Shown here one piece after another: positions 16,081 through 19,000 of a stretch of 64,000 nucleotides of DNA. Source of the DNA: Lepidostoma basale (lineage: Eukaryota > Arthropoda > Insecta > Trichoptera > Lepidostomatidae); NCBI GenBank assembly GCA_022606425.2, contig JAHDVF020001032.1:62001-126000 (forward strand), read 5' to 3'. The position numbers and the translations under genes were made by a program. The notes beneath the pieces are model-generated. The model was given only the letters and a program-made list of their open reading frames with translations, made no database searches and had not been told where the DNA came from. Every line of letters starts with the position of its first letter. Position 1 is the stretch's first letter.

Positions 16081-19000
16081 GTAAGTGAACTCCATTCTCT
16101 CTTCAACCAATATTAATGGGATATCGCTGTTCATCGTACTGTTTCTCACTGTACCCCTTGTTTCAGTCCTTGGACAGCACGAGGCGGATGCTATCGCTCT
16201 GTGAGGAGGTAAGTTTCGACAACTTTTGTTTATTTATCGTACATATAAATACTACAAGAGATTGGCATAGTCTCTGAAATTAGAAATGAAAAACTTGTGG
16301 GAAATTGTGGGGATTCTCACCGTCAACGGATACACATGCTCGAGTCTGCGTATTGCAGTTGGGTTCACTTGACGGTGGGGTCGCTCTCTCGGCTTTAGGT
16401 CTCGGGGAGTAGAGACGACGCCATTTCCCGCATATTGTTGAAACTGTCCACTTCCATGCTCTTATAATTCACACCAAGTGAGATGTTTTTCATGTCAAGT
16501 GATGTTTTTGAATATTTCTCCGAGGTGTTATTATTTTTGGCGCATTTTTCGAGGCGCAATGCATTAGAACAGCCTGGAGTCTCGCAGATTACTTCACGTT
16601 TAGCCAGGAGTTTCTGGGCAACACTCGTTCTCGCAGTGCTGATGAATTGTAGACATGCATCGCGAGTCTGGGATTGCAGGTTGCCCGCCACAGAGTGGAT
16701 GGTAAGTGTGTTATCGGCTGCCGGGTACATATGACCCGTGGAGAACGTCGTGCCCTTTGGCCACGCGCCTTGCAGGTGTCCCGGTGTCCCGCGGAGCCGC
16801 CGTCCGCTGCCCCCGCTGCATGTCCACCGCGGCCCGTGCCAACTGCTCCATGCCCCCTGCCGTGGCCCCAGATGGCGCAGAGCATGGAGCACTTGTCACG
16901 CCGGCCCCCGCGCGCTGACTGTCGTACTGTGTTTCATGTTCTCCTCTCCCTCGGACTTCTTTCTCCCGGCTTATATTCCTATTGAAAACTGTTCATTTCC
17001 TCTTGATATAATACAATACTATCCTCCATCATCTACGTGGTGGATAGTATTATTGTATATCAACATGTCTTCATGAAACTGATTGATTTCAGCATTTCTA
17101 GTGGATCATGGTTCAATCAGTTTTAGAATAAATGAATAAGATTGTTATTATTATATTTTTAAATTCGTGCAGTTAGTATGAGTTAAGATTTAGACTTTAG
17201 AAATAATGAACAAGTTGAGACAGTTTTGTATTGCGCCTGCTTCCTGCAACGTGGGTCCCCATCGTCCTGCATCCTGTCCTCATCCACCGTCCGTGTCGCT
17301 AGTGCCTCGGTATGTTGTGTTCAATGTGCTTCCTCCAAGCTTGACCTCGGGCGATGCTGGTGCTGACTATATCCTTGACCTGATGATTGCTGGCTACTGG
17401 AAATGTTTTGCAGCATCGACCGTCTCTGAGCATCAATGTACAAGTGTCCCCCCACCCCACCCCCTTGAGTCCCCACCCCCTCCCGCTCTTAGTGGCTGCT
17501 GTCTGCTCCCCTGTCTGTCTCCTGTGTGACTGTATGTCACCTCACTGTTTCCATATGTATTATATATTTTACTCTATGTATGTCTACTTCTTCCTATATT
17601 TCTGAATGTGTGTTTTATATGGATATACATTAACTTTTGTATAAAATACACAAGTCTGCTGTACGTTAGGAGATATATGTGTCTGCCGCGCCCGGGGCGG
17701 GCCCCCGTGAGTGGGAGTCCCTCGGACTCCGCCCCGCACCGCTCCCGGCGGGGCGCCGGCTCGCCCCGGGCGCGGGGTTCACGTAACAAGCATGTTGTAC
17801 ACACAATATGACTTCTCTGTTTTACTCTCTATCTCTCTGAATCTCTATCTCTCTGAATATATATAAAGCCTCTCTTTATAGATATCACGCTGAACTTTAT
17901 ATGATCAAGAATTATTCTTCTATAAGCACTCGACAGCTCGGGAGCCAATGTCACCTCATCACCTTCATCACCACAAGCAGCTAGGTCCCCCGAGACACAC
18001 CCAAGTTTCAAGATCACTGTAGACTCCATCTTCATACGATCTCTGTAACATTGCATTAAACACGGACATGCCATTGACATGACATAGAAACATAAATGAT
18101 TGTATTAGTAATTGAGACTATCGAGTCGAGTTGAGTCGAGTTGACAAACTTCCATCATCATCATCATCATCATCAGTCCTCAGGTCCACCACAAACACAC
18201 GCTCGGCACTCTGTAGTGAGTAGGTCTGTGGTGGTATGGTATGTTTGGGTTGGTAGTTAGTGGTAGCGCTTGTGCGGCACACCGTCACATTCACATCCCT
18301 CACCTCATCCGTAGACCGTCACGGCTCCCGGGTACCATAACTAAAGCACTACTCTTCGCAGATGGGGCGCTCTCCTCACATGGTGACAGGTCACACGGCA
18401 AGGTCACATATACTAATGTTCCCGGCCGCCCCCCGCCACTAATACTAACATGGATGTGTCCGTTTCTGTTTGTTTTGCTGGCCGCATAGAGCAAGGAGGC
18501 CGGAATACGCACTCTGGTCGCCCTAGACGATCAGGGAGGTGAGTGAACTTACGCTACATTCACGGAGGGCAGGCACACAGAGGGCACACGCACAGCACAG
18601 CACACTGTCCACAGACTCACGGACACTTACAGACGGAGCAAGGTAGCTGCATGCGTGTCGCTCAGTAGATCGTGCTGTGCTCGCTTATCCCTCCCAGCCC
18701 GAGGGCCCCTACTGACTCTCACTGTTCCCTAGAGCCAGCAGTCCGGCGCCTCCAGCAGCCGCCTCTTGGGGCACCAGGGCGGTAAGCTCCCAATCTCCCC
18801 ACCGGTTTGTTTGTCTCTGTCTCTCTGTGTTCTTGTTCTTGTTCTATGGGGTTACGGTTCTCTCTGTTAACAGCAGCCACTGGCCGATTGATTGTTGCAA
18901 ATCTGTTGCTATCATAGAAGGTTCATCTTCCGGGTCTTTCTATACTGTTTATTTCCTAGTTGTTTAGGACCATGTTTTTATTTCTGACTGTTATTGTTTT

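What the first reader, a model, noticed from the sequence alone, without database searches (positions are those of the whole stretch)
18733..18781. A third, layer-preserving cassette exon in insect SNAP-25
Between two recognisable copies of the ionic-layer exon (A at 18490, C at 19688) lies a third 49-nt open segment with a strong acceptor and donor, the same phase in and out, and the same first codon AGC. It encodes SQQSGASSSRLLGHQG. Aligned without gaps to SKEAGIRTLVALDDQG, only five residues match (S1, G5, L12, Q15, G16). Counting back by 3/4 spacing from the zero-layer Gln, these are the core layer positions -4, -3, -1 and 0, with Thr to Ser at -2. Outward-facing positions are replaced by small polar residues. 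Preserving layers while replacing the surface suggests selection on a working SNARE helix with new partners or weaker zippering. I know of no described SNAP-25 isoform of this kind.
Basis: partly seen in the sequence, partly recalled or inferred. Interest (0 to 1): 0.9.

Follow-up and report, generated by a model that had tools for sequence, protein, structure and literature searches.

The report
Third alternative SNAP-25 exon in insects
This caddisfly-like insect gene for the nerve-terminal fusion protein SNAP-25 carries a convincing third interchangeable exon of a kind that many insects have, and it keeps the fusion core while lacking two acidic residues that in mammals bind the calcium sensor synaptotagmin.

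Summary
The exon looks real. At 18733-18781 a 49-nt, in-phase exon lies between copies A (18490) and C (19688) of the SNAP-25 ionic-layer exon; each alone gives an open 216-aa protein. It is not unique: B-type exons sit in SNAP-25 isoforms of many insect orders and some crustaceans. Of the 120 hits listed, 119 were typed and 72 are B; three species show A, B and C. The closest listed hits are from the caddisfly Arctopsyche grandis. On a profile of the other B exons the window exon ranks 3rd of 55,861 stop-free segments, behind only C and A, though below every known B exon. New here: positions 13/14 match rat SNAP-25 D51/E52, part of the synaptotagmin-1 C2B site. Both are acidic in 21/21 A, 26/26 C and 0/72 B exons. 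Best mechanism (inferred): splicing swaps in a fusion-competent helix less coupled to the calcium sensor. From Arctopsyche, exon B differs at 10 of 16 residues; the A-form protein from residue 19 on at 3 of 198. Eight paper searches on the isoform found no description.

The parts
15976..16080 (+). SNAP-25 first coding exon (start codon to first donor)
   Evidence: translation MPSGAAAEPAAGEAPGVPRTELQELQMRAGQVTDD; donor GTAAGT
16167..16208 (+). SNAP-25 coding exon 2 (SLDSTRRMLSLCEE), shared upstream partner of A, B and C
18490..18538 (+). alternative exon A, SKEAGIRTLVALDDQG, 49 nt
   Evidence: identical to exon A of Arctopsyche grandis P0002
18733..18781 (+). alternative exon B (the finding), SQQSGASSSRLLGHQG, 49 nt
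   Evidence: phase and open CDS, B-profile rank 3 of 55,861; counterparts in other insects
19688..19736 (+). alternative exon C, SHEVGMKTLVMLDEQG, 49 nt
   Evidence: identical to the commonest C-type exon among the hits read
22519..22636 (+). SNAP-25 shared downstream exon (EQLDRIEEGMDQ...); completes the split Glu codon (rat E55) after A, B or C
22734..23007 (+). SNAP-25 coding exon with linker and most of the second SNARE motif
   Evidence: CDS of 651 nt closes with this end
24454..24516 (+). SNAP-25 last coding exon with TAG stop
   Evidence: GESNETRIAVANQRAHDLLK*

Best explanation
Exon B is the third member of an ancient cluster of mutually exclusive exons in the insect SNAP-25 gene (shown by sequence; mutual exclusion follows from the frame, not from reads). 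It encodes residues equal to rat SNAP-25 39-54, layers -4 to 0 of the first SNARE helix. Using it gives a full-length SNAP-25 that can still zip into the four-helix bundle, because layer residues -4, -3, -1 and 0 are kept and -2 is Thr to Ser (shown in sequence; working function inferred). It lacks the acidic pair at 51/52 (here Gly-His) and the Lys at 40, residues that in mammals form part of the synaptotagmin-1 C2B binding surface. The likely mechanism is that splice choice decides whether a SNARE complex carries the C2B docking acids (A or C) or only E55 of the three (B). B-containing complexes would then fuse with weaker synaptotagmin-1 clamping and triggering, or answer to another calcium sensor (inferred). 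The rapid change of the other outward positions fits loss of that constraint. I put about 0.95 on a real, conserved third exon and about 0.45 on the synaptotagmin uncoupling.
For: Intact frame, splice sites and codon bias of B. B-type exons in 72 of 119 typed hits, 61 distinct sequences, from mayfly to Diptera and Lepidoptera plus Daphnia. A, B and C isoforms of one species in Bacillus rossius, Copidosoma floridanum and Cloeon dipterum. 15 B-type proteins of full length (211-231 aa) come from clusters whose longest contig is 963-2519 nt, best read as spliced RNA. Layer conservation 0.26 against 1.76 bits; 5 of 4368 five-position sets, the layer set included, are as conserved. Typed on positions 1-12 only, both acids at 13/14: A 21/21, C 26/26, B 0/72; His at 14 in 48/72 B. 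Residue numbers come from the alignment to solved SNAP-25 chains anchored on the recalled zero-layer Gln53; the motif's spacing fits K40, D51, E52 and E55. D51/E52/E55 are the acidic patch for synaptotagmin-1 C2B; D51A/E52A/E55A impairs C2B binding while assembly was called normal (passages of PMC4878868). K40, D51, E52, E55 and D166 are mutated together to break the primary interface (passages of PMC9811660). The patch serves both structurally defined C2B-SNARE binding modes (passages of PMC9623538) and the interface is called critical for efficient triggering (passage of PMC11589869).
Against: No RNA from this species. No binding or physiology for any B isoform. E55 and the syntaxin acids remain, so binding may be reduced rather than lost; 22 of 72 B exons keep an acid at 51 and 3 of 72 at 52. 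C exons also lack the Lys at 40 (0 of 26), so that change is not special to B. The triple-alanine complex was less SDS-resistant (passage of PMC4878868), so loss of the acids might act through bundle stability. One study found that displacement of complexin by C2AB on membrane-anchored SNAREs did not involve D51/E52/E55 (passage of PMC9623538). The interface was mapped on mammalian proteins. Some molluscan and decapod exons also lose one of the two acids, so the loss is not peculiar to one class outside insects. The hits are related species, not independent events, and were ranked on a B query.
Confidence: 0.55

Rival explanations
1. Exon B is a working alternative exon whose role is to change the SNARE assembly step itself (slower or weaker N-terminal half zippering, or a different syntaxin or synaptobrevin partner); the loss of the acids is incidental or acts only through bundle stability.
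For: Outward positions change widely, and layer -2 is Ser in the window and Ala in the Lepidoptera B exons listed. The triple-alanine mutant of the acids gives a less SDS-resistant complex (passage of PMC4878868).
Against: Layers are almost invariant across 61 distinct B exons. Mean helix propensity of B equals that of C. Models are helical in both isoforms (they do not test stability).
Confidence: 0.2
2. Exon B is a general-secretion (non-neuronal or developmental) isoform in which surface residues are simply released from synaptic constraint, without any specific switch of calcium sensor.
For: Fast change at surface positions: 10 of 16 exon residues differ from Arctopsyche against 3 of 198 in the A-form protein from residue 19 on.
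Against: His at position 14 is kept in 48 of 72, Gln at 15 in 61 and Gly at 16 in 60 of 61 distinct B exons, which is more order than pure release predicts.
Confidence: 0.15
3. In this lineage the once conserved exon B is decaying and is no longer spliced in, or only as noise.
For: The window B scores 10.95 bits, below the lowest leave-one-out score of the 61 other B exons (21.65). It lacks the usual Thr at layer -2, Leu at position 9 and any acidic residue.
Against: No stop, no length change, usable splice sites, GC3 16/16, layers and His14 kept. Random substitution to 10 changes keeps the layers without a stop in 0.00185 of runs, before indels and splice sites are counted.
Confidence: 0.09
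4. A chance 49-nt segment between AG and GT with no history as an exon.
For: 49-nt AG-GT segments are common (398 in the window, 175 open).
Against: Profile rank 3 of 55,861 with a gap of more than 10 bits to the next segment, and the same exon class is present in SNAP-25 isoforms of other insects.
Confidence: 0.01

Closest known systems
B-type SNAP-25 isoforms of other insects in public protein sets (e.g. Arctopsyche grandis isoform X3, Neocloeon triangulifer isoform X2, Tribolium castaneum isoform X4, Papilio xuthus isoform X4)
   Same: Same gene, same 16-residue slot, layers kept, mostly His-Gln-Gly end, alternative to A and C exons
   Different: Window exon scores below all 61 others: Ser at layer -2, Ser at position 9, no acidic residue
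Vertebrate SNAP-25a/SNAP-25b (exon 5a/5b)
   Same: Mutually exclusive copies of a SNARE-domain exon in the same gene (abstract and passages of PMC2581893)
   Different: Vertebrates duplicate exon 5, which I recall to begin at about residue 56, just after the slot duplicated here; two copies not three, nine residues differ; that paper places the duplication in early bony fish and says it was not described in Drosophila
SNAP-25 D51A/E52A/E55A laboratory mutant (PMC4878868, passages)
   Same: Loss of the acids at 51 and 52 on an otherwise assembling SNARE helix
   Different: Here a natural splice form; E55 is kept; position 40 is Gln rather than Lys

Membership tests
Mutually exclusive exon cluster | Neighbouring homologous exons of equal length and phase | tested here: met
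   Three 49-nt exons, phase 0 in and 1 out; A/B 24/49 and B/C 22/49 identical, reached by 6 and 14 of 5000 shuffles
Mutually exclusive exon cluster | Only one copy gives an open frame; skipping or double use breaks it | tested here: met
   A, B or C alone: 651 nt, stop at codon 217. A+B, A+C, B+C: first stop at codon 136; A+B+C: 88; none: 66
Mutually exclusive exon cluster | Transcripts use exactly one copy | not testable with these tools
   No RNA from this species; other insects show single-copy isoforms of each type
Qb SNARE helix of SNAP-25 | Layer residues -4 to 0 with Gln at layer 0 | tested here: met
   S, G, S (for T), L, Q in the window; Gln at 0 in 61 of 61 distinct B exons; layer assignment recalled, register by alignment
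Insect B-type SNAP-25 exon | Matches the profile of other B exons better than background | tested here: met
   10.95 bits, rank 3 of 55,861 behind C and A; but below all 61 leave-one-out scores, minimum 21.65
Insect B-type SNAP-25 exon | No acid pair at positions 13/14 | tested here: met
   Gly-His in window; 0 of 72 B exons have both acids
Vertebrate SNAP-25a/b exon 5 pair | Duplicated exon encodes the stretch after the zero layer | tested here: not met
   Window duplicates the exon ending at the zero layer; the following exon (22519) was matched once in the genome search; the vertebrate exon boundary is recalled
Poison exon | Inclusion introduces a frameshift or stop | tested here: not met
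   B alone keeps the frame; only double or triple inclusion breaks it

The most novel reading that the evidence does not exclude
Insects, and probably their crustacean relatives, carry a splice-selected SNAP-25 that builds a fusion-competent SNARE bundle without the synaptotagmin acid pair. It would be a natural, cell-controlled switch between synaptotagmin-clamped and synaptotagmin-independent fusion. Its other surface residues evolve many times faster than the rest of the protein, perhaps tracking a lineage-specific partner.
Probability: 0.35. Interest if true: 0.85.

Novelty: new variant of a known kind. Interest (0 to 1): 0.62.

Why it matters
SNAP-25 is a highly conserved synaptic protein, and in the papers whose passages I read the D51/E52 patch is probed with laboratory mutants. 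A natural splice form without the pair would allow a direct test, in an animal, of what synaptotagmin-SNARE docking is for, and would suggest that insects can set the calcium-coupling of release by exon choice. It also shows the core of a SNARE helix and its surface under very different constraint within 16 residues.

Tried and rejected
Unique to this genome: rejected, B-type isoforms are widespread. Chance open segment: very unlikely. Poison exon: rejected, B alone keeps the frame. Weaker helix by composition: not supported. Allelic or paralogous second copy in the assembly: the DNA search with 18600-18900 matched only itself; the protein search gave SNAP-25 exons only on contig C111 plus one 28% match on C394. 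AlphaFold comparison did not discriminate: blocks covering the exon have mean pLDDT 86-90 in the B model and 74-81 in the A model, from different alignments, pTM 0.25 in both. Naming the species by mitochondrial COX1: a partial gene was seen, but no protein search was left to place it. Competing RNA structures that might enforce exclusion were not tested. A honeybee paper that holds the words SNAP-25 and splice variants (PMC5717273, passages) uses the latter for another gene.

Limits: each of the three protein searches listed only the best 120 (of 1201, 1303 and 2500), and the first was ranked on a B query, so B is over-represented. P0086 was dropped before the counts because its exon was misread; P0170 could not be read. 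The counts use the hits only. Types were assigned by rule, and species orders are recalled except for Arctopsyche. The splice-score matrices, helix-propensity scale, background residue frequencies and SNARE layer assignment are recalled. The 3 of 198 comparison leaves out the first residues of the protein, which differ more and align poorly.

Full report
What is there. The window holds a complete SNAP-25 coding region on the + strand in six exon positions, one of which is a triplet of alternatives: exons at 15976-16080, 16167-16208, then A 18490-18538, B 18733-18781 or C 19688-19736, then 22519-22636, 22734-23007 and 24454-24516. A, B and C are each 49 nt, begin AGC, and have the same phases. 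Any one alone gives 651 nt and 216 residues; A+B, A+C and B+C stop at codon 136, A+B+C at 88, and skipping all at 66. So the exons must be used one at a time to make protein; that they are so used was not seen in RNA.

Is B more than chance. B is the third best of 55,861 stop-free 16-codon segments, both strands, on a profile made from 61 distinct B-type exons of other animals (10.95 bits; C 31.3, A 24.2, next 0.17). The nucleotide sequence matches A at 24 of 49 sites and C at 22 of 49, reached by 6 and 14 of 5000 shuffles. Its third codon positions are all G or C, in step with GC3 0.84 of the gene; 4 of 2713 overlapping stop-free windows in the sampled intron stretches match that. Of 398 49-nt segments between AG and GT, B alone reaches B's own two splice scores (score matrices recalled), but exons A and C do not, so that test by itself proves little. 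No further copy appears in the window above background.

Relatives. A search with the B isoform found 1201 proteins and listed 120. The top two are isoforms of the caddisfly Arctopsyche grandis (Trichoptera): X2 with exon A identical to the window, X3 with SEEAGTQTNTMLTHQG. Reading the same 16 residues in all 120 and dropping one misread row (P0086) gives 21 A, 26 C and 72 others, here called B, with 61 distinct sequences. By the source names (orders recalled), B occurs in mayflies, stick insects, Orthoptera, cockroach, Hemiptera, thrips, Hymenoptera, Coleoptera, Lepidoptera, Diptera and the caddisfly, and also in Daphnia; barnacle, brine shrimp and copepod versions came with the second search. 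Bacillus rossius, Copidosoma floridanum and Cloeon dipterum each show A, B and C among the listed hits. Fifteen of the 72 B hits are whole proteins from clusters whose longest contig is under 3 kb, too short for a gene like this one, whose coding part spans 8.5 kb with introns; spliced RNA is the plain reading. In the four Drosophila entries listed only A or C were seen, which does not show absence.

Layers and surface. Across the 61 distinct B exons these five average 0.26 bits of entropy against 1.76 for the rest; 5 of 4368 sets of five positions, the layer set included, are as conserved. Between window and Arctopsyche, exon B differs at 10 of 16 residues, while the A-form protein from RTELQ to the end differs at 3 of 198 (the first residues are left out). 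The six unchanged residues include four of the five layers (hypergeometric 0.036), and random substitution up to 10 changes keeps the layer pattern with no stop in 0.00185 of 20,000 runs. Against this, the window B lies below every leave-one-out score of known B exons (lowest 21.65), so relaxed constraint in this lineage remains possible.

What is specifically missing in B. Position 2 equals rat K40 and positions 13 and 14 equal D51 and E52 (alignment, anchored on the recalled zero-layer Gln53; the spacing also fits E55). Typed only on positions 1-12 to avoid circularity, both 13 and 14 are acidic in 21 of 21 A and 26 of 26 C exons and in 0 of 72 B exons; B has His at 14 in 48 of 72, an acid at 13 in 22 and at 14 in 3. 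The window has Gly-His. Lys or Arg at position 2 is in 21 of 21 A, 0 of 26 C and 1 of 72 B, so it is not what sets B apart. From passages only: D51, E52 and E55 form the acidic patch for synaptotagmin-1 C2B, and the triple alanine mutant impairs binding although assembly was called normal and the complex was less SDS-resistant (PMC4878868); K40, D51, E52, E55 and D166 are mutated together to disrupt the primary interface (PMC9811660); both structurally defined C2B-SNARE binding modes use this patch, though one membrane-based competition did not (PMC9623538); and the interface is called critical for triggering (PMC11589869). E55 comes from the codon split with the next exon and stays in all isoforms.

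Mechanism, with status. Shown here: three frame-compatible exons, a conserved class, layers kept, acid pair absent. Inferred: exon choice sets how strongly a SNARE complex docks synaptotagmin; B complexes are weakly clamped and triggered, or used with another sensor or in another secretory route. Helix propensity gives no sign that B is a weaker helix than C, and AlphaFold models of Arctopsyche B and A isoforms run helical through the exon (B helix 20-98; A helix 33-94); these models do not measure stability.

Comparison with the known. Vertebrate SNAP-25a/b also arise from mutually exclusive copies, but of exon 5 (abstract and passages of PMC2581893); the slot here is the one ending at the zero layer, and the next exon was found once in the genome. 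So this works like the vertebrate case but is not the same duplication. Eight paper searches on the isoform gave no paper that I could see describing an insect SNAP-25 exon of this kind; two more were on the synaptotagmin interface. The library lacks most subscription journals, I judged most hits by the listing, and I read only passages of seven papers (PMC5740500, PMC4878868, PMC9811660, PMC11589869, PMC2581893, PMC9623538, PMC5717273). The isoform itself is present in public protein sets, so the exon class is not undiscovered as sequence; its pattern and possible meaning appear undescribed within those searches.

Noticed in passing
window 28751-29731 (-) and 49872-50204 (-): Open frames matching the ZIP zinc transporter family (PF02535; E 5.5e-45 and 5.1e-13), possibly exons of one minus-strand gene downstream of SNAP-25.
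   Followed up: partly
window 1421-1798 (+): Fragment matching Transposase_1 (PF01359, E 1.6e-08), which I take for a mariner-type relic.
   Followed up: partly
window 19810-20167 and 20319-20374: Long TA dinucleotide arrays (179.5 and 28.5 copies) in the intron between exon C and the shared downstream exon.
   Followed up: no
L006 (G000 contig C728, 1,059,387 bases): A 542-aa COX1-family frame without stops under the standard code on a 1.06 Mb contig, which suggests a bacterial (symbiont or contaminant) contig in the assembly. A search for Surface_Ag_2 found nothing, but its controls were silent too.
   Followed up: partly
P0139 (Mya), P0160 (Pomacea), P0134 (Cherax), P0142-P0143 and P0145-P0146 (Procambarus), P0150 (Chionoecetes): Molluscan and decapod SNAP-25 isoforms vary in the same 16-residue slot and keep only one of the two acids, and Procambarus clarkii lists isoforms up to X11; the exon cluster may be older or recurrent.
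   Followed up: no
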